Made by a program: the position numbers and the translations under genes. From Alistipes sp. (lineage in GTDB: Bacteria; Bacteroidota; Bacteroidia; Bacteroidales; Rikenellaceae), in NCBI GenBank assembly GCA_017532885.1, contig JAFXIS010000009.1, positions 1 through 11,872 of the forward strand: DNA of 11,872 nucleotides, in the 5' to 3' direction. Below the pieces are notes generated by a model. It had not been told where the DNA came from, ran no database searches, and saw only the letters and a list, made by a program, of their open reading frames with translations. Below, one piece after another: positions 2,720 to 11,872 of the stretch. Numbering within the stretch: the stretch's first letter is position 1; each line of letters begins with the position of its first letter.

Positions 2720-5700
2720 ATGTCAGAGAAGAAATTTATCACTTGTGATGGTAACTATGCAGCGGCGCATATCGCGTACAAATTTTCAGAGGTAGCTGCT
2801 ATCTACCCTATCACACCTTCATCGACTATGGCCGAGTATGTAGACGAGTGGGCTGCACAGGGCCAGAAGAATATGTTTGGCGAGACCGTTAAGGTTGTCG
2901 AGATGCAGTCTGAGGCCGGTGCTGCCGGTGCTGTACACGGTTCTTTGCAGAGCGGCGCTTTGACCTCGACCTTCACAGCTTCACAGGGTTTGCTGTTGAT
3001 GGTTCCCAACATGTATAAGATTTCGGGTGAGTTGTTGCCGGGTGTTTTCCATGTATCGGCGCGTGCTTTGGCTGCACAGTCATTGTCTATCTTCGGTGAC
3101 CACCAGGATGTAATGGCTACACGCCAGACCGGATTTGCTATGTTGGCGACATCTTCAGTTCAGGAGGTTATGGATTTGGCTGGTGTTGCTCATATCGTCG
3201 CGTTGAAGGCTCGCGTTCCATTCCTTCACTTCTTCGACGGATTCCGTACTTCACACGAGATTCAGAAGGTTGAGATTATCGACGACGCATCGCTCACCTC
3301 ATTGCTCGACCGCGATGCTCTTAAGGCATTCCGCGCTGCAGCTTTGAACCCCGAGCACCCCGTAACTCGTGGTACTGCACAGAACCCCGATATCTACTTC
3401 CAGACTCGTGAGGCTTCAAATAAGTTCTATGATGCAGTTCCCGACATGGTAGCTGATACTATGGAGAAGATTTCTCAGATTACAGGTCGTTGCTACAAGC
3501 CATTCACATATTATGGTGCTGAGGATGCCGAGAACATCATCGTAGCTATGGGTTCTGTAACCGAGACTATCAAGGAGACTATTGATTACTTGGCAAAGCA
3601 GGGCAAGAAGGTTGGTCTTATCACCGTTCACCTCTACCGCCCATTCTCAGAGAAGTATTTCTTCAATGTAATGCCTGCATCGGTTAAGCGCGTATGCGTT
3701 TTGGACCGCACAAAGGAGCCCGGAGCAAATGGAGAGCCTTTGTATCTCGATGTTAAGGATATGTTCTATGGCAAGGAGTCGCAGCCTATGGTTATCGGTG
3801 GTCGCTATGGTCTTTCATCAAAGGACACTACTCCCGCACAGATTTTGGCAGTTATCGAGAACTTGTTCGCAGCAGAGCCAAAGAATCACTTTACAGTAGG
3901 TATTAATGACGATGTTACTAACCTTTCATTGCCCGTAGGCGAGGAGGTTGCCGTAGCAGAGGCAGGTACTTTCGAGGCTTTGTTCTTCGGTTTGGGTGCT
4001 GATGGTACTGTAGGTGCTAACAAGAACTCAATCAAGATTATCGGTGGCACTACCGACAAGTATTGCCAGGCATACTTCTCTTACGACTCAAAGAAGTCGG
4101 GAGGTTACACATCTTCACACTTGCGTTTCGGCGATAACCCGATTCGCTCACCTTATTTGGTTACTACACCAGACTTCGTGGCTTGCCATGTACCATCGTA
4201 TGTCGATAAGTATGATGTTTTGAAGGGCTTGAAGAAGGGTGGCTCATTCCTTTTGAACTCTGTTCACGATGCTGCGACCACTTGCGCTACTTTGCCCGAC
4301 CACATGAAGGCTTATTTGGCAAAGAACAACATCAACTTCTATATCATCAACGCTACGAAGATTGCTGCCGAGCTTGGCTTGGGCTCTCGTACCAACACCA
4401 TCATGCAGTCTGCATTCTTTAAGATTGCCGAGGTTATTCCTTTTGAGAAGGCTGTTGAGGAGATGAAGAAGGCTATCTTGAAGTCTTACGGCAAGAAGGG
4501 CGAGGATATCGTAAATATGAACTACGCTGCAGTTGATGCAGGTGGCTCGGCTGTTGAGAAGGTTGAGGTTCCCGCAGAGTGGGCTTCAATCGAGGTTAAG
4601 GCAGCAGAGGCTGTAGTTGATATGTCACGCCCCGCATTCGTGCGCGAGGTATGCGACCCGATTAACGCATTGAAGGGTGATGACCTTCCTGTATCGGCAT
4701 TTAATGGTCGTGAGGACGGTACTTGGGATAATGGCACGGCTGCTTACGAGAAGCGCGGTATCGCTGTGAATGTTCCCGAGTGGTTGGTTGAGAACTGTAT
4801 CCAGTGTAACCAGTGTTCTTATGTCTGCCCCCACGCTGCTATCCGTCCATTCCTCGCTACGGAGGAGGAGGCTACGGCTTTGGGTGATTTGGCTTGGAAG
4901 CAGGGCTTGGGTGAGACTAAGACCTACAAGTTCCGCATTCAGGTATCGCCACTCGACTGTACAGGTTGCGGCAACTGTGTTGATGTATGTCCTGCAAAGA
5001 CCAAGGCTTTGGTTTTGAAACCTTTGGAGTCACAGATGCCACAGGCAGAGAATTGGAACGCCGTATTGAAGGGTGTAAGCATCAAGACCGATGTTATCGA
5101 CAAGACCAAGAGCGTGAAGAACTTGCAGTTCGAGCAGCCTTTGTTCGAGTTCTCGGGTGCTTGTGCCGGTTGCGGTGAGACTCCTTATATTAAGACTATC
5201 ACACAGCTCTTCGGCGACAAGATGATGGTTGCTAACGCTACGGGTTGTACATCTATTTACTCTGGTTCAGCACCTTCTACTCCTTACTGCACAAATTCCA
5301 AGGGTCAGGGTCCCGCATGGGCTAACTCACTCTTCGAGGATAACGCCGAGTTCGGTTTGGGTATGCATGTAGGTGTCGAGAAGTTGCGCGACCGCATCCA
5401 GAAGTATATGGAGCAGGCAATGGCCGAGTGCGAAAAGTGCTCAGATGAGCTTAAGGAGGCTATGAAGTCATGGATTGAGAATCGTGGCTCTTCGAATGCT
5501 TCTGCCGAGGCTACTGCCAAGCTGCTTCCGTTGTTGGAGGCTTGTGGTTGCGACTACTGCCAGAAGATTCTCGAGATGAAGGATTGGCTCGTTAAGAAGT
5601 CACAGTGGATTATCGGTGGTGACGGCTGGGGCTACGATATCGGCTTCGGTGGTGTAGATCATGTTTTGGCTTCAGGTATGGATGTAAATATCTTGGTTGT

Positions 5701-6253
5701 CGATACCGAGGTTTACTCTAATACAGGTGGTCAGTCATCTAAATCTACTCCCGTGGGTGCTGTTGCGAAGTTCGCATCAAGCGGTAAGCGCATCCGCAAG
5801 AAGGATTTGGGGGCAATCGCAATGACTTATGGTTATGTATATGTTGCTCAGGTATCAATTGGTGCTTCGCAGGCGCAGCTTTTGAATGTCTTGAAGGAGG
5901 CAGAGGCTTACCCTGGACCATCACTCATCATCGCATATGCACCATGTATCAACCACGGTATCAAGGGCGGTATGACTCGCACGCAGACCGTAGGTAAGCA
6001 GGCTGTTGAGTGCGGTTACTGGCACTTGTGGCACTACAACCCAATGTTGGAGGAGCAGGGCAAGAATCCATTCGTTATGGACTCTAAGGAGCCCGATTGG
6101 TCGAAGTTCCGCGACTTCTTAATGAAGGAGGTACGCTATACTTCACTCCAGAAGTCATTCCCCGCAGAGGCTGAGGAGCTCTTCGCTGCAGCCGAGGAGA
6201 ATGCAAAGTGGCGTTACAACACATACCAGCGTCACGCAAAGATGGAGTACTAA
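2720..6253 (+). CDS. nifJ: Pyruvate:ferredoxin (flavodoxin) oxidoreductase, homodimeric
   Basis: The 1177-residue protein oxidises pyruvate with CoA to acetyl-CoA and CO2, reducing ferredoxin or flavodoxin; it feeds fermentation in anaerobes and acts in the cytoplasm. All domains are present in order: N-terminal transketolase-like pyruvate domain with Y-P-I-T-P-S near residue 29 and the H-V-S-A-R-A-L segment; the central gamma-type and CoA-binding regions; a two-[4Fe-4S] ferredoxin insert with C693, C696, C699, C703 and C747, C750, C753, C757; and the thiamine-diphosphate domain with G-D968-G-W-G-Y-D-I-G and N1001-T-G-G-Q. The proximal cluster ligands C815, C818, C843 and C1076 correspond to the four known in the Desulfovibrio africanus enzyme. 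Length is typical (about 1170-1200). Codon choice is visibly restricted (Lys nearly always AAG, Gly mostly GGT), a sign of high expression. It has its own promoter and terminator. Confidence 0.98.
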   Translation: MSEKKFITCDGNYAAAHIAYKFSEVAAIYPITPSSTMAEYVDEWAAQGQKNMFGETVKVVEMQSEAGAAGAVHGSLQSGALTSTFTASQGLLLMVPNMYKISGELLPGVFHVSARALAAQSLSIFGDHQDVMATRQTGFAMLATSSVQEVMDLAGVAHIVALKARVPFLHFFDGFRTSHEIQKVEIIDDASLTSLLDRDALKAFRAAALNPEHPVTRGTAQNPDIYFQTREASNKFYDAVPDMVADTMEKISQITGRCYKPFTYYGAEDAENIIVAMGSVTETIKETIDYLAKQGKKVGLITVHLYRPFSEKYFFNVMPASVKRVCVLDRTKEPGANGEPLYLDVKDMFYGKESQPMVIGGRYGLSSKDTTPAQILAVIENLFAAEPKNHFTVGINDDVTNLSLPVGEEVAVAEAGTFEALFFGLGADGTVGANKNSIKIIGGTTDKYCQAYFSYDSKKSGGYTSSHLRFGDNPIRSPYLVTTPDFVACHVPSYVDKYDVLKGLKKGGSFLLNSVHDAATTCATLPDHMKAYLAKNNINFYIINATKIAAELGLGSRTNTIMQSAFFKIAEVIPFEKAVEEMKKAILKSYGKKGEDIVNMNYAAVDAGGSAVEKVEVPAEWASIEVKAAEAVVDMSRPAFVREVCDPINALKGDDLPVSAFNGREDGTWDNGTAAYEKRGIAVNVPEWLVENCIQCNQCSYVCPHAAIRPFLATEEEATALGDLAWKQGLGETKTYKFRIQVSPLDCTGCGNCVDVCPAKTKALVLKPLESQMPQAENWNAVLKGVSIKTDVIDKTKSVKNLQFEQPLFEFSGACAGCGETPYIKTITQLFGDKMMVANATGCTSIYSGSAPSTPYCTNSKGQGPAWANSLFEDNAEFGLGMHVGVEKLRDRIQKYMEQAMAECEKCSDELKEAMKSWIENRGSSNASAEATAKLLPLLEACGCDYCQKILEMKDWLVKKSQWIIGGDGWGYDIGFGGVDHVLASGMDVNILVVDTEVYSNTGGQSSKSTPVGAVAKFASSGKRIRKKDLGAIAMTYGYVYVAQVSIGASQAQLLNVLKEAEAYPGPSLIIAYAPCINHGIKGGMTRTQTVGKQAVECGYWHLWHYNPMLEEQGKNPFVMDSKEPDWSKFRDFLMKEVRYTSLQKSFPAEAEELFAAAEENAKWRYNTYQRHAKMEY

Positions 6254-6293
6254 AACATCCAACGCCTGATATTTAATATTAGGTAATATACAG

Positions 6294-6330
6294 AAAACTG
6301 CCCGACTTTTTAGGTCGGGCAGTTTTTTTT
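6294..6330. terminator. Strong Rho-independent terminator, nifJ end, probably bidirectional
   Basis: A perfect 13-bp stem (6294-6306 with 6314-6326, core CTGCCCGAC/GTCGGGCAG) closes a 7-nt loop and runs into eight T residues (6323-6330). On the minus strand the same stem ends in TTTT, so it can also stop transcription of the convergent trpB gene that ends at 6372. Confidence 0.93.
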
Positions 6331-6371: not shown

Positions 6372-7736
6372 CTACTTGATAATCTTATCCAAAGCATCCA
6401 CCGCTCGGCGAATCTCCGCCTCCGAGACTTCGTGATCCACAAGTTTATTGTTGAAATATTGCTCAAAGGCATAGAGGTCAATCATTCCGTTACCCGAGAG
6501 GTTGAACAAAATAGTCTTCTCCCGACCCTCCTCCTTGGCTTTTTTCGCCTCGCGCACAGCGACAGCTATGGCATGGCACGACTCCGGAGCCGGGATTATA
6601 CCCTCACTATTGGCGAACATCATTCCCGCAGCAAATGTCTCAAGTTGCGGCACCGACTGCGCCTCCATCAAACCATCCTTATAAAGCTGACTCACGATGC
6701 TTCCCGCACCATGGTAGCGCAATCCTCCGGCATGAATATCCGAAGGCTGGAAGGTATGTCCGAGCGTGTACATCGGCATCATGGGCGTCATACCTGCCGT
6801 ATCGCCAAAGTCGTATTGGAACTCTCCGCGCGTGAGCTTGGGACATGATGCCGGCTCAACCGCTATTACGCGCGTTTTCTTGCCCTCCACCAAGTTGCGA
6901 CGAATGAAAGGGAAGCCTATACCGGCGAAGTTCGAGCCACCGCCAAAACAGCCTATAACGACATCGGGGTCATCACCCGCCATCTCCATCTGACGGAGTG
7001 CCTCCTCGCCAATTACGGTCTGATGCAGCAGGACATGATTCATAACGCTACCCAAGCAGTAACGCGTATCATCGCCATGCTCCATAGCCACTTCAACCGC
7101 CTCCGAGATAGCTATACCCAAGTTACCCGAGCAATCAGGATCTTTGGCCAATACCTCGCGACCAAAGCGCGTTGTCGCGCTCGGCGAGGGGATAACATTT
7201 GCACCCCACGCATTCATCAAAAGCTTACGGTAAGGCTTCTGTTGGCAACTCACCTTAACCATATAAACTCTTAGGTCGATATTGAAGTATTGACACGCCA
7301 AAGCCATAGCACTACCCCACTGACCGCCACCCGTTTCGGTTGCAAGGAACTTTATGCCCTGCTTTGCGTTGTAATATGCCTGCGGGATAGCCGTATTGGG
7401 TTTATGCGAGCCGGCAGGAGATGTACCCTCGTTCTTGAAATATATCTTTGCCGGAGTATCCAACATCTTCTCCAATCCATATGCGCGAACAACAGGCGTA
7501 GGTCGCCATATTTTATATAGTTCCTGCACTTCTTCGGGGATTTCGATATATCGCTCCTCGGAGAGTTCCTGCCGAACCAACTCCTCGCCGAAAATACGAC
7601 ACATAGAGTCATATGTGACAGGCTTCTTGGTCACAGGGTCCAATGCCGGCAGAGGTTTATTGGGCATATCGGCCACGATATTATACCATGCCGTTGGCAT
7701 CTGCTGCTCGGAGAGCATAAATTTCTTCGTTTTCAT
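6372..7736 (-). CDS. trpB: TrpB2-type tryptophan synthase beta-like protein (PLP-dependent)
   Basis: This 454-residue protein belongs to the TrpB2 branch of pyridoxal-phosphate enzymes rather than to classical TrpB (about 395 residues). It has the N-terminal extension typical of that branch (about residues 1-75) and ends in a helical tail. Visible catalytic features: PLP Schiff-base lysine K112 in G-S-H-K-P-N-T-A, catalytic glutamate E134 in E-T-G-G-G-Q-W-G, and the PLP-phosphate loop G-G-G-S-N at 265-269. The chemistry would be condensation of indole with serine (or phosphoserine) to tryptophan. No trpA or other trp gene is adjacent, as is common for TrpB2, whose role (indole salvage versus biosynthesis) is debated. 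A tandem-Trp leader peptide with switching hairpins lies directly upstream, supporting a real role in tryptophan supply. Confidence 0.93.
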   Translation of the reverse strand: MKTKKFMLSEQQMPTAWYNIVADMPNKPLPALDPVTKKPVTYDSMCRIFGEELVRQELSEERYIEIPEEVQELYKIWRPTPVVRAYGLEKMLDTPAKIYFKNEGTSPAGSHKPNTAIPQAYYNAKQGIKFLATETGGGQWGSAMALACQYFNIDLRVYMVKVSCQQKPYRKLLMNAWGANVIPSPSATTRFGREVLAKDPDCSGNLGIAISEAVEVAMEHGDDTRYCLGSVMNHVLLHQTVIGEEALRQMEMAGDDPDVVIGCFGGGSNFAGIGFPFIRRNLVEGKKTRVIAVEPASCPKLTRGEFQYDFGDTAGMTPMMPMYTLGHTFQPSDIHAGGLRYHGAGSIVSQLYKDGLMEAQSVPQLETFAAGMMFANSEGIIPAPESCHAIAVAVREAKKAKEEGREKTILFNLSGNGMIDLYAFEQYFNNKLVDHEVSEAEIRRAVDALDKIIK

Positions 7737-7784: not shown

Positions 7785-7820
7785 AAAAAACCATCGTTCA
7801 ATCTTTAGAACAATGGTCTT
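7785..7820 (-). terminator. Intrinsic terminator inside the trp leader (segments 3:4)
   Basis: A 10-bp stem with one G-U pair (7817-7808 with 7799-7790) closes an 8-nt loop and is followed by T at 7790-7785. It lies about 50 nt before the trpB ATG and after the leader ORF, so it acts within the 5' leader and not at a gene end. Confidence 0.85.
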
Positions 7821-7862
7821 AAACTTTCCAACTTACTACATTACAATCACATACACGCCAGT

Positions 7863-7925
7863 TTACCCATTGTTCTTTATTCCCAATGAGCGCCACCAAA
7901 AGCGGATATATGAATTAGACAACAT
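7863..7925 (-). CDS. trpL: trp leader peptide, 20 aa with tandem Trp codons
   Basis: ATG 7925-7923 opens a 20-codon frame ending in TAA at 7865-7863. The peptide begins MLSNSYIRF, then W10-W11, and ends RSLGIKNNG. The two adjacent TGG codons (7898-7893) are far above chance in so short a frame. The ATG lies about 16 nt after the predicted transcript start. The last four sense codons and the stop form segment 2 of the attenuator, and codons 12-14 hold segment 1, so ribosome position decides the fold. The peptide itself probably has no function beyond being translated. The frame is too short for usual gene calling. Confidence 0.87.
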   Translation of the reverse strand: MLSNSYIRFWWRSLGIKNNG

Positions 7926-7947: not shown

Positions 7948-7979
7948 CAAATGTAAGCATAAAAAACTAAAAAAACAAA
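7948..7979 (-). promoter_or_regulatory. Bacteroidota-type promoter for the trp leader and trpB
   Basis: On the minus strand TTTG (7979-7976) and TACATTTG (7955-7948) are separated by 20 bp, an almost ideal promoter for this phylum. Its position fits a transcript that starts just before the leader peptide. It lies back to back with the rmuC promoter. Confidence 0.82.
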
Positions 7980-10280: not shown

Positions 10281-11417
10281 TTACTCTACGCTATTGCCTT
10301 TAGAGTCAATTATATGCCATTCGTAGAGGTCGTGTTTCTGCACCTCGAACAATTCGCTTGAGAGCATCGAAATATCGGAATATATGGCGGGCGTGATAGG
10401 TTCGCCCGTGAGACGGTTCATTATGCCATAGCGATTCATAATGCCATATTTCACATAGTCAGACAGAGCATACACAACCTCGTCGTCCTCGTCGCATCCA
10501 ACGGGATAATACAGGAACGAGCTCTCATCAATCATGAAAGGTTGGACGATATTGCCCTCGAAATCCACCTGCCACTGCTTACCGCCCTTAGTCAGGACAA
10601 AGCCGTCCAAACCGATAGTGATATAGCGATATTCGGCAGGATAGAGTACTGCACCCGAGGCATCCAAAACCCCATATTTCCCATTCTTGATAACCATGCG
10701 ATATCCGCTTGCGTGAGGTGCCCAAATCTCATCATAGTGAGGCTCTACGACCCAATTTCCCGCTTTATCAATCAAGCCCAAGTCGCCATCGGCGTTTGTC
10801 ATGGCGCAGTAGCCATTATGGAAGATATAGCCAAATTCCCACATGCGGCACAAATCCGAATAATCGAACTTAAATGGTATCACAACCTCATTTGCGGCGT
10901 TGATAAAGCCTATCTTGCCATCCTTCATCACAGCAGCCAAACCATCGGAGAACACCCACGCCTTACGGTAGTCGTTAGCCTCGGCATCGATGACAACCCG
11001 ACCTGTCTTTACATTGATATAGCCGCGTTTATCGGGCAGGGCATACACAGCCAGGGAGTCGCCCTCCTGAATCTCCGACAGCCAATTTATTTTATCGGTA
11101 ACATACTCCTCCGCCTGACAATCATAGACCCTCCAACGATTATCGGCGAAAGAGTGCAACATAATGCCTTGTGAGAGCGGTCTATCGTAGTAATCTCTGC
11201 CATAGTTATCGTCGTAGAAGTCATAAGCCTCACAAGCTACATACCCTACTGCAAGCAGCGCCACAACCGCCACAACCGAGCGGCGAAGCCACTTCGAGCG
11301 CTTCTTCCACCAATTACGAACAGTGCGCCAAGCAAGGCGACCAAAAGCAATAATCGCCGTAAAAATCAAGGCTACCACACCGAGTAGTGCCTGAAAAATT
11401 TGAGTCAGTCGTTTCAT
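10281..11417 (-). CDS. WG-repeat protein with two N-terminal membrane segments
   Basis: The 378-residue protein has two hydrophobic segments (about 8-25 and 47-63) separated by a strongly basic stretch rich in Arg, Lys and Trp. By the positive-inside rule this loop is cytoplasmic and the large C-terminal part is periplasmic. That part carries WG-type repeats, each a short (K/D)-x-G-x-x-D/N-x-x-G motif followed by a V-I-x-P-x-Y-D-like strand: about 130-146, 167-188, 211-231, 246-266, 281-293 and 322-349. WG repeats are a structural fold of unknown general function; I infer binding or scaffolding in the envelope. Its ATG lies 2 nt after the creD stop codon, so the two are one operon. A short in-frame duplication lies in the last repeat. 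Confidence 0.85.
   Translation of the reverse strand: MKRLTQIFQALLGVVALIFTAIIAFGRLAWRTVRNWWKKRSKWLRRSVVAVVALLAVGYVACEAYDFYDDNYGRDYYDRPLSQGIMLHSFADNRWRVYDCQAEEYVTDKINWLSEIQEGDSLAVYALPDKRGYINVKTGRVVIDAEANDYRKAWVFSDGLAAVMKDGKIGFINAANEVVIPFKFDYSDLCRMWEFGYIFHNGYCAMTNADGDLGLIDKAGNWVVEPHYDEIWAPHASGYRMVIKNGKYGVLDASGAVLYPAEYRYITIGLDGFVLTKGGKQWQVDFEGNIVQPFMIDESSFLYYPVGCDEDDEVVYALSDYVKYGIMNRYGIMNRLTGEPITPAIYSDISMLSSELFEVQKHDLYEWHIIDSKGNSVE
10413..10448 (-). repeat. Tandem 18-bp in-frame duplication in the WG-repeat gene
   Basis: Two adjacent 18-bp units (10413-10430 and 10431-10448) differ at three positions and each encode Y-G-I-M-N-R (residues 324-335). The synonymous differences show the copy is not brand new or has been kept under selection. 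Confidence 0.85.
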
Positions 11418-11419
11418 CG

Positions 11420-11872
11420 TTATTCTGTTTTTGCAAGTTCTTTGTTATTGTTCATATTGGCTGTAAGATACATTACAACGCAGAGGAGCAGGAACAACAC
11501 TACTGAGCCAGCGAGCAGTGCGTAAGTCTCCATTTGAAGCAGCATATAATTCAACGCATAGACCACTGCTACAAATCCGCCAAGGACATAAGCACTACGG
11601 CTCTTCAAGATGGCTCTGAAGTAGAACATCATTGCACCTGTCGTCATCAAGGCTGCAATTATGTACGCCACGCCAAAGGTTATAAACTCGGAGAAGGCAA
11701 CTAACAATGAGTAGAACAACACGAGCGACAGACCTATTACAGCATACTGGATAGGATTAATCTCCTTGCGAGTCAGGAACTCCACGAACAAGCCTGCTAC
11801 GAAGACAAGAATGATGATGAGCATTCCATACTTTGCTGAGCGCATTGACTGCTGATAAGGGTTAGCTGGATC
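11420..11872 (-). CDS. creD: Cell envelope integrity protein CreD, C-terminal part (5' end beyond window)
   Basis: The frame runs open to the window edge, giving 150 codons; the first visible residues are D-P-A-N-P-Y-Q-Q-S-M-R-S-A-K-Y-G. Family CreD proteins are about 430-460 residues, so roughly the last third is seen. The Y-Q-x-S-x-R-S-x-K-Y start followed by five tightly spaced hydrophobic segments (about visible residues 16-33, 42-63, 67-88, 94-113 and 117-137) is the conserved C-terminal membrane domain of CreD. An internal ATG at 11845 is not the true start, because the conserved motif begins before it. CreD is an inner-membrane protein whose loss or overexpression alters envelope and beta-lactam phenotypes in other bacteria. 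The gene ends 2 nt before the WG-repeat gene. Confidence 0.9.
   Translation of the reverse strand, partial: DPANPYQQSMRSAKYGMLIIILVFVAGLFVEFLTRKEINPIQYAVIGLSLVLFYSLLVAFSEFITFGVAYIIAALMTTGAMMFYFRAILKSRSAYVLGGFVAVVYALNYMLLQMETYALLAGSVVLFLLLCVVMYLTANMNNNKELAKTE

What the first reader, a model, noticed from the sequence alone, without database searches (positions are those of the whole stretch)
7785..7890. Complete four-segment attenuator switch in a Bacteroidota member
Segments 1 (7890-7884), 2 (7876-7860), 3 (7825-7807) and 4 (7799-7790) allow mutually exclusive 1:2, 2:3 and 3:4 helices, the last an intrinsic terminator. Segment 2 is a perfect 10-bp complement of segment 3 and extends by another 6 bp. 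Ribosome positions fit: the second Trp codon lies 15 nt before segment 2, so stalling masks segment 1 and frees 2, while arrival at the stop masks 2. This parallels the E. coli trp leader, although the genes and sequences are unrelated. A 'Bacteroid-trp' RNA motif has been described as I recall it; an example driving a lone trpB2 may widen its known range.
Basis: partly seen in the sequence, partly recalled or inferred. Interest (0 to 1): 0.85.

Follow-up and report, generated by a model that had tools for sequence, protein, structure and literature searches.

The report
Tryptophan attenuator controlling lone trpB2
A gut Bacteroidota bacterium whose relatives mostly lack the normal tryptophan pathway carries a ribosome-sensing RNA switch that should turn on its tryptophan-from-indole enzyme only when tryptophan runs low; the switch is conserved in relatives and looks like a rewired cousin of a known RNA family.

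Summary
On the minus strand a 20-codon leader ORF (7925-7863) with tandem Trp codons precedes a 1:2 hairpin, a 2:3 antiterminator and a 3:4 intrinsic terminator ahead of trpB2 (7736-6372). The layout recurs before 37 of 80 related trpB2 genes. Terminator and antiterminator covary. In 29 non-redundant elements the outer helix, the inner helix and the segment-2:terminator pairing each fit their own partner better on average than permuted partners (0 of 5000). Rfam's Bacteroid-trp model gives no match in the window at E<=10, yet models built here link the two groups. A difference in logic appears: 34 of 43 trpB2 leaders, this one included, pair segment 2 with the terminator's 5' arm, whereas 27 of 30 trpB1/trpE leaders use its loop or 3' arm. 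Of 20 relatives' genomes searched, 19 lack trpA, trpB1 and IGPS over cut-off, so trpB2 there is probably an indole-salvage tryptophan synthase. Verdict: new variant of a known kind, well supported by comparison, untested by experiment.

The parts
7976..7979 (-). probable -33 promoter element TTTG (Bacteroidota type; consensus recalled)
   Evidence: read directly; 20 nt from the -7 box; 17 of 37 leaders have TANNTTTG with a TTG at about this spacing
7948..7955 (-). probable -7 promoter element TACATTTG (consensus TANNTTTG, recalled)
   Evidence: 29 of 37 trpB2 leaders examined have TANNTTTG upstream of the leader start, 1.9 expected by mononucleotide shuffling (one of the 38 could not be examined)
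7863..7925 (-). leader ORF MLSNSYIRFWWRSLGIKNNG*
   Evidence: such leaders precede 36 of 80 related trpB2 genes with an ATG start, 0 of 80 on the reverse complement, 0.44 of 80 in shuffles
7893..7898 (-). tandem Trp codons TGG TGG (sensor)
   Evidence: two to four Trp codons in the 37 loci (these were picked by TGGTGG, so its invariance in A1 is by selection)
7901..7913 (-). segment 1a: 5' strand of the outer helix, before the Trp codons
   Evidence: MFE; own partners beat permuted partners on average in 29 non-redundant elements, 0 of 5000 permutations
7884..7891 (-). segment 1b: pairs with segment 2a, inner 1:2 hairpin
   Evidence: GCTCATTG with CAATGGGT; 0 of 5000 permutations as high; covariation at fixed columns not above shuffles
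7860..7876 (-). segment 2a: antiterminator 5' strand; contains the leader stop
7847..7859 (-). segment 2b: 3' strand of the outer helix, after the leader stop
7807..7825 (-). segment 3: pairs with 2a (antiterminator) or with 4 (terminator 5' arm)
7790..7799 (-). segment 4: terminator 3' arm
   Evidence: 8 of 12 terminator pairs with changes on both sides, 94.2% of cells paired
7785..7790 (-). T6 run of the intrinsic terminator
6372..7736 (-). trpB2, TrpB-like PLP enzyme, 454 aa
   Evidence: NF009057 E 4.9e-214 and TIGR01415 E 2.9e-186, both over cut-off; TIGR00263 (trpB1) 145.4 of 392.45 bits

Best explanation
This is a ribosome-mediated transcription attenuator that senses Trp-tRNA and controls trpB2. 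When charged Trp-tRNA is plentiful the ribosome runs through the Trp codons to the stop and covers segment 2; segments 3 and 4 then form the intrinsic terminator and transcription stops near 7785. When Trp-tRNA is scarce the ribosome stalls on the Trp codons at 7898-7893 and holds open both the outer helix (1a:2b) and the inner helix (1b:2a). Segment 2a is freed and pairs with segment 3 before segment 4 is made, and RNA polymerase reads on into trpB2. With no translation, 1:2 forms and termination results. The enzyme most likely condenses indole with serine or phosphoserine to tryptophan, so the switch would turn on indole salvage during Trp shortage. Shown by sequence and comparison: the segments, the Trp codons, the conserved helices, the context in relatives' genomes. 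Inferred: stalling, termination, antitermination and the enzyme's role in the cell.
For: Segments and ORF. Trp-run leaders upstream of 36 of 80 related trpB2 genes, 0 of 80 on the reverse complement, 0.44 of 80 in shuffles; 37 of 80 with a terminator 60-150 nt on. Terminator 8 of 12 pairs and antiterminator 5 of 11 with double changes; 0 of 500 shuffles reach the observed values on four of five measures in each case. Outer helix, inner helix and segment 2:terminator each 0 of 5000 permutations in 29 elements of at most 70% identity. Fold simulation for the window: expected 2:3 pairs before segment 4 exists are 12.7 stalled, 1.7 naked, 0.2 with the ribosome at the stop. Counting pairs of segment 2 with segment 3, the loop and the first 5 nt of segment 4, stalled exceeds stop in 40 of 43 trpB2 leaders. 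The E. coli trp leader gives the same pattern. Promoter box in 29 of 37. trpA, trpB1 and IGPS not over cut-off in 19 of 20 genomes.
Against: At equilibrium on the full leader the terminator wins in every state (0.95 naked, 0.88 stalled, 0.95 stop), so antitermination must be kinetic; the E. coli leader behaves the same in this model. L016 shows no state dependence, and 3 of 43 trpB2 leaders fail the stall-over-stop test. On the measure 'further pair types' neither terminator (115 of 500) nor antiterminator (52 of 500) exceeds shuffles. Inner-helix covariation at fixed columns is not above shuffles on any measure; for the outer helix three of five measures are, and the -2 slide scores slightly higher on the covariation score (0.162 against 0.153). 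In the outer-helix permutation test L035, L104, L117, L011, L124 and L039 pair no better than 40-100% of cross pairs. 43 of 80 related trpB2 loci show no such leader, some of them cut short by contig ends. No expression data.
Confidence: 0.92

Rival explanations
1. It is simply a member of the Rfam Bacteroid-trp family (RF01692) that happens to stand before trpB2.
For: Same order of parts, including an outer helix around the Trp codons (RF01692 alignment). The trpB2 model R1 finds 14 of 15 RF01692 loci at the element, 9 with E<1e-4 and 5 between 0.001 and 0.031. The trpB1/trpE model R2 matches 28 of 32 trpB2 leaders given to it at E<=10, 10 of them at 1.3e-8 to 6.3e-5. The E. coli trp leader scores only 22.1 bits (R1) and 15.8 bits (R2). 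A Rikenellaceae trpB1 leader also fails Rfam's threshold (L129, 34.5 of 49 bits), so failing it does not by itself set the window apart.
Against: RF01692 gives no match at E<=10 in the window or in 13 trpB2 loci. R2 scores the window only 21.1 bits, E 0.42, and misses L016, L020, L036 and L103. The antiterminator partner differs. G409 and G415 carry both kinds side by side (the G415 trpB1 leader read by eye). The weaker model matches are no better than background: R1 gives an off-target E of 0.0043 (L012), R2 one of 4.3e-4 (L031 at 4323-4460).
Confidence: 0.25
2. Convergence: the trpB2 leader arose independently and looks like Bacteroid-trp because any Trp attenuator needs Trp codons, a hairpin and a terminator.
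For: The E. coli trp leader also scores with R1 (22.1 bits, E 0.01). Much of the signal of R1 and R2 is probably the Trp codons and the terminator; R2 holds no outer helix. The window is weak with R2.
Against: Bacteroidales trpB1 leaders score up to 48.7 bits with R1 and trpB2 leaders up to 64.1 bits with R2. Outer-helix pairing averages 18.85 in 17 trpB2 and 17.95 in 12 trpB1/trpE elements against 14.35 for cross pairs.
Confidence: 0.3
3. The hairpins are real but there is no switch: a constitutive partial terminator with an incidental small ORF.
For: Full-length equilibrium folding favours the terminator in all states. No RNA data.
Against: Tandem-Trp leader ORFs are far above chance (36 of 80 against 0.44 of 80). 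Segment 3 keeps pairing with two different partners. Own-partner pairing, 0 of 5000 permutations.
Confidence: 0.03
4. A metabolite riboswitch or protein-bound leader rather than ribosome stalling.
For: Conserved structured leader; the Firmicutes/Fusobacteria 'trpB motif' was proposed as a possible riboswitch, its authors not ruling out a classic attenuator (PMC11109978, passages).
Against: No riboswitch, T-box or RF04312 match in the window at E<=10. The conserved parts are Trp codons and interacting segments.
Confidence: 0.03
5. The switch is real but TrpB2 here does something other than make tryptophan (for example serine deamination, a hypothesis discussed in PMC1854888).
For: PMC1854888 (passages) reports that a trpB2_o retained without other trp genes had been taken as a sign of another, unidentified function.
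Against: A Trp-specific sensor makes sense mainly if the product bears on Trp. The same passages cite poor serine deaminase activity of tested TrpB2_o proteins. PMC11917138 (passages) calls TrpB2 enzymes phosphoserine-dependent and of high affinity for indole, citing others.
Confidence: 0.08

Closest known systems
Bacteroid-trp RNA (Rfam RF01692; Weinberg 2010, PMC2864571, passages seen)
   Same: Bacteroidota; leader ORF with two or three Trp codons; outer helix bracketing the Trp codons; inner hairpin; terminator; Trp gene downstream.
   Different: In the 14 loci read here it stands before trpB1 (13) or trpE (1), judged by the start of the ORF; segment 2 (for example GUCGUGAG) pairs with the terminator loop and 3' arm (CUCACGAC). 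Rfam's model does not match the window at E<=10. Here segment 2 pairs with the 5' arm and the gene is trpB2.
E. coli trp operon leader (trpL; Rfam Trp_leader RF00513)
   Same: Tandem Trp codons, 1:2 / 2:3 / 3:4 logic, 3:4 terminator, same simulated behaviour.
   Different: Different sequence; a lone trpB2 rather than a trp operon downstream; longer leader with an outer helix; RF00513 not matched in the window.
Classical trp attenuators of Actinobacteria (PMC1262725, passages seen)
   Same: Trp-codon leader with antiterminator and terminator before trp genes.
   Different: Different phylum; the 'trpB2A' named there is a second trpBA operon, so far as the passage tells, not a lone TrpB2-class gene.
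trpB motif (RF04312; PMC11109978, passages seen)
   Same: Structured leader sometimes before trpB, with a terminator.
   Different: Firmicutes and Fusobacteria; no match in the window at E<=10; a sub-threshold match (27.6 of 59 bits) touches the L058 leader.

Membership tests
Ribosome-mediated (classical) transcription attenuator | short leader ORF with tandem codons of the regulated amino acid | tested here: met
   WW at 7898-7893; ATG...TGGTGG...stop in 36 of 80 related loci, 0 of 80 on the reverse complement
Ribosome-mediated (classical) transcription attenuator | mutually exclusive 1:2, 2:3 and 3:4 helices ending in an intrinsic terminator | tested here: met
   the inner 1:2 helix only by the permutation test, not at fixed columns
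Ribosome-mediated (classical) transcription attenuator | stall position frees segment 2, stop position covers it | tested here: met
   window: 12.7 against 0.2 expected 2:3 pairs (a simulation); not general, see L016
Ribosome-mediated (classical) transcription attenuator | amino-acid-dependent read-through | not testable with these tools
   no expression data
Bacteroid-trp RF01692 | score at or above Rfam's gathering threshold (49 bits) | tested here: not met
   no match at E<=10 in the window or in 13 trpB2 relatives
Bacteroid-trp RF01692 | outer helix around the Trp codons plus inner hairpin | tested here: met
   family; here
Bacteroid-trp RF01692 | antiterminator pairing seen in trpB1/trpE leaders: segment 2 with loop or 3' arm (observed here, not a published criterion) | tested here: not met
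   window 9/1/0 positions in 5' arm/loop/3' arm; 27 of 30 trpB1/trpE leaders loop or 3' arm
Bacteroid-trp RF01692 | common descent with the family | tested here: inconclusive
   models of each group find the other above the E. coli control in part, but the window itself is weak with R2 (21.1 bits, E 0.42)
E. coli Trp_leader RF00513 | Rfam match | tested here: not met
trpB motif RF04312 | Rfam match | tested here: not met
TrpB2 (TIGR01415 / NF009057) | curated HMM score over cut-off | tested here: met
   619.2 against 518.85 bits and 710.9 against 366 bits

The most novel reading that the evidence does not exclude
A distinct branch of Bacteroidota Trp attenuators has been built onto lone TrpB2 genes: gut Rikenellaceae and Odoribacteraceae that lost the trp operon keep a Trp-tRNA-sensing switch whose job is to turn on indole-to-tryptophan salvage. 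Its antiterminator has been rewired (segment 2 takes the terminator's 5' arm instead of invading its loop and 3' arm), with at least two changes of logic on the TrpB2 tree and both logics side by side in single genomes. It would argue strongly that TrpB2_o is a tryptophan synthase in vivo in these bacteria.
Probability: 0.6. Interest if true: 0.65.

Novelty: new variant of a known kind. Interest (0 to 1): 0.5.

Why it matters
The role of stand-alone TrpB2 has been in doubt (PMC1854888, passages seen). A recurrent Trp-codon sensor in front of it is context evidence that the cell treats it as a tryptophan-making gene, and predicts that gut Bacteroidota with no other trp genes, which a pathway survey without a lone-TrpB2 variant would count as plain Trp auxotrophs (PMC9026213, passages seen), can live on indole from others when Trp is short. 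The two antiterminator logics on one scaffold also give a natural comparison of how attenuators rewire: a loop-invading antiterminator and a classical one in the same genome.

Tried and rejected
Rfam scan for a ready-made family: only sub-threshold matches in the window, none at the leader, best Thr_leader 30.9 of 55 bits at 6276-6329. RNAalifold on A1 saw only the terminator, so the other helices were tested by named structures and by permutation. Inner helix at fixed columns: not above shuffles, probably because its register slips. A first automatic classification of antiterminator partners let segment 1 or the terminator itself act as partner and so mis-called several rows (L018, L035, L038, L041, L063); the search range was narrowed and the class rule changed. 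Even so L035, L038 and L041 are weak calls, in the trpB1/trpE group L091, L095 and L108 are weak, and the three trpB1/trpE exceptions L104, L112 and L118 are ambiguous. The trpB1/trpE set was picked by RF01692 and R1 hits, so it is not a random sample, and most of its downstream genes were named only from the first residues of the ORF, not by HMM; L113 is unsure. L059 was dropped as spurious. L092 was dropped because its element sits at a contig end and was read from the wrong place. In the tree the L063 row has branch length 10 and is probably a wrong ORF; one search shows a TrpB2-like reading at the expected place. Selection by TGGTGG makes that motif's invariance in A1 circular; one search was run as the control. 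The tryptophanase search (TIGR02617) matched 14 of 20 genomes, none over cut-off; some may be tyrosine phenol-lyases (recalled), so no claim is made on the indole source. Literature: listings and passages showed no description of a Trp attenuator at trpB2 in Bacteroidota; the library lacks most subscription papers, among them Lopatovskaya 2010, seen only in a reference list.

Full report
What was checked. The gene is TrpB2: TIGR01415 and NF009057 over cut-off, classical trpB (TIGR00263) at 145 of 392 bits. The 2:3 helix is 10 pairs plus 6; the 3:4 helix is 10 pairs with one G-U. All reader coordinates hold.

More than chance. In the window alone, 17 of 2000 dinucleotide shuffles of the segment-2 region pair as well with the terminator, suggestive but not proof; across 73 elements only 39 had at most 5% of shuffles as high. 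The better evidence is comparative. Of 80 related trpB2 loci (the best 80 of 576 confirmed), 38 have a TGGTGG with a terminator-like hairpin 60-150 nt on; one (L059) is spurious, leaving 37 plus the window. Some loci had too little upstream DNA to judge (L022, L045, L077). As a control, an ATG...TGGTGG...stop leader occurs in the upstream 330 nt of 36 of 80 loci, in 0 of 80 on the reverse complement, and in 0.44 of 80 on average (at most 2) in 50 rounds of dinucleotide shuffles. Thirty of the 38 elements were aligned (A1; the eight most diverged were left out: L035, L038, L041, L046, L056, L058, L063, L067). Terminator: 94.2% of cells paired, 8 of 12 pairs with double changes, slid versions at most 51%. 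Antiterminator: 87.8% paired, 5 of 11 pairs with double changes, slid at most 60%. On both, 'further pair types' did not exceed shuffles. One arm, segment 3, thus keeps up pairing with two partners.

Sequence just before the Trp codons pairs with sequence just after the leader stop: in the window 7913-7901 with 7859-7847 (MFE). Clear cases include L012 (CACATAACTCT with AGAGTTATGTG), L046 (GACATGAACA with TGTTCATGTC), L062 (AATCACATGACC with GGTAATGTGATT) and L067. At fixed columns the signal is moderate: cells paired, double-change cells and covariation score above all 500 shuffles, the other two measures within them, and the -2 slide scoring about the same. By permutation in 29 elements of at most 70% identity, own-partner pairing averages 18.5 against 14.35 for cross partners, 0 of 5000 permutations as high; 17 of 29 are in the top 10% of their cross pairs, while L035, L104, L117, L011, L124 and L039 are no better than 40-100% of cross pairs. 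The inner 1b:2a helix passes the permutation test (15.0 against 13.1, 0 of 5000) but not the fixed-column test. Segment 2 with the terminator passes too (20.3 against 15.7, 0 of 5000). So 1:2 is a long hairpin with the Trp codons inside it, and a ribosome stalled there should open it.

How it should work. With the ribosome's assumed footprint forbidden to pair, the RNA up to just before segment 4 forms 12.7 expected 2:3 pairs when stalled on Trp, 1.7 when naked and 0.2 with the ribosome at the stop. Counting pairs of segment 2 with segment 3, the loop and the first 5 nt of segment 4, stalled exceeds stop (by over 0.5) in 40 of 43 trpB2 and 30 of 30 trpB1/trpE leaders, and exceeds naked in 34 of 43 and 29 of 30. 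On the full leader at equilibrium the terminator wins in all states (window 0.95 naked, 0.88 stalled, 0.95 stop), so the switch must be kinetic. The E. coli trp leader, run through the same procedure, gives 0.97, 0.88, 0.97 and 0, 5.0, 0. L016 shows no state dependence in this model. In L016, L017 and L020 the leader runs 48-51 nt past the Trp codons, so the released state there cannot rely on a ribosome parked on segment 2.

Relation to Bacteroid-trp. Rfam RF01692 finds nothing in the window at E<=10 and nothing in 13 trpB2 relatives. The Rikenellaceae trpB1 leader L129 also falls short of the threshold (34.5 of 49 bits), and L058 has a sub-threshold match on the other strand only. In a sample of 295 Bacteroidales genomes RF01692 matches 26, of which 15 are over the cut-off; of the 15 loci fetched, 14 could be read and stand before a TrpB1-like (13) or TrpE-like (1) ORF, and the RF01692 consensus carries the same outer helix. 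A model of the trpB2 leaders (R1) finds 14 of these 15 loci at the element, nine with E<1e-4 and five between 0.001 and 0.031, the latter no better than an off-target match of 0.0043 in the same run. The E. coli trp leader scores 22.1 bits, E 0.01, which marks the level that convergence alone can reach. Over 393 Bacteroidales genomes R1 matches 117 at E<=0.01; of these only the 30 fetched loci were read, and four of them (L116, L120, L121, L125) showed no Trp leader, so the tail is not all real. A model of 24 trpB1/trpE leaders (R2, with no outer helix in it) matches 28 of 32 trpB2 leaders at E<=10, ten at 1.3e-8 to 6.3e-5 (best L102, 64.1 bits), but the window only at 21.1 bits (E 0.42), E. 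coli at 15.8, and one off-target at 4.3e-4. Kinship is therefore likely for the group but not proved for the window.

A difference in logic. In 34 of 43 trpB2 leaders segment 2 pairs with the terminator's 5' arm, as in E. coli; in 27 of 30 trpB1/trpE leaders it pairs with the loop or 3' arm, for example GTCGTGAG with CTCACGAC. It is not just lineage: G409 has a trpB2 leader of the first type (L018) and a trpB1 leader of the second (L129), and G415 likewise (L015; L157 read by eye). On a TrpB2 tree the two types need three changes, at least two forced by well supported branches (by the drawn tree two do not depend on the doubtful L063 row). Counts are of related sequences and of a chosen set, so they are not independent.

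Genome context. No genome is held for the window. In 20 genomes of trpB2 relatives, trpA is over cut-off in 1 (two more have 21-bit fragments), trpB1 in 1 (TrpB2 itself gives a sub-cut-off match in all 20) and IGPS in 1, always G409. The controls ring over cut-off in 14 of 14 for trpA and IGPS and 13 of 14 for trpB1. Many of the 20 are MAGs, but by record title L020, L026 and L031 are not. One of the 20 (L013, G406) has no leader either, so 18 of 20 have the leader with no trpB1. Outside these 20, G415 and G420 do carry a trpB1 with its own leader, so at least 3 of 22 keep a trp operon gene. R1 matches 30 of 35 such genomes, one place each except two each in G409 and G415; G420's single match is at trpB1, its trpB2 (L024) having none. 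So in most of the genomes looked at, the switch stands before the only tryptophan synthase beta gene found.

Literature. The Bacteroid-trp entry was seen in a table of PMC2864571 (passages). Leader-peptide attenuation upstream of amino-acid operons is mentioned for Flavobacterium psychrophilum (PMC9723704, passages), and sORFs reminiscent of leader peptides for Bacteroides thetaiotaomicron (PMC7366714, passages). A survey of gut amino-acid biosynthesis lists Trp variants with no lone-TrpB2 variant in the table passage seen (PMC9026213). The listings and passages show no Trp attenuator at trpB2 in Bacteroidota; titles and passages only were seen, no whole paper.

Verdict. The finding is real and the mechanism is of a known kind. 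New here: the gene it serves, the outer helix in these leaders, the rewired antiterminator and the genome context that points to indole salvage. All function is inferred; nothing was measured.

Noticed in passing
window 6297-6330: Strong terminator-like hairpin with T runs on both strands between the pyruvate:ferredoxin oxidoreductase gene (2720-6253 +) and the end of trpB2 (6372 -).
   Followed up: no
L111 (G007), 1501-1643 -: A leader with Trp-Arg-Trp (MRKLNINYWRWRTK) instead of adjacent Trp codons before a TrpB2-like ORF, found by R1 at E 1.7e-6.
   Followed up: no
L024 and L158 (genome G420): trpB2 without a leader while the same genome's trpB1 keeps a Bacteroid-trp-like leader.
   Followed up: partly
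L019, 1789-1966: trpB2 upstream region without tandem Trp codons and with a weak R1 match (E 0.04): perhaps a decaying attenuator.
   Followed up: no
L016, L017, L020, L021, L023, L025, L027: In this Alistipes branch the leader peptide is longer and alike past the Trp run (LVNNEC...); in L016, L017 and L020 the stop was measured 48-51 nt past the Trp run.
   Followed up: partly
window 10281-11417 - and 11420-11845 -: An uncharacterised ORF without an NCBIfam match (a WG-repeat protein by eye) next to a piece resembling the C-terminal part of CreD, under its cut-off.
   Followed up: no
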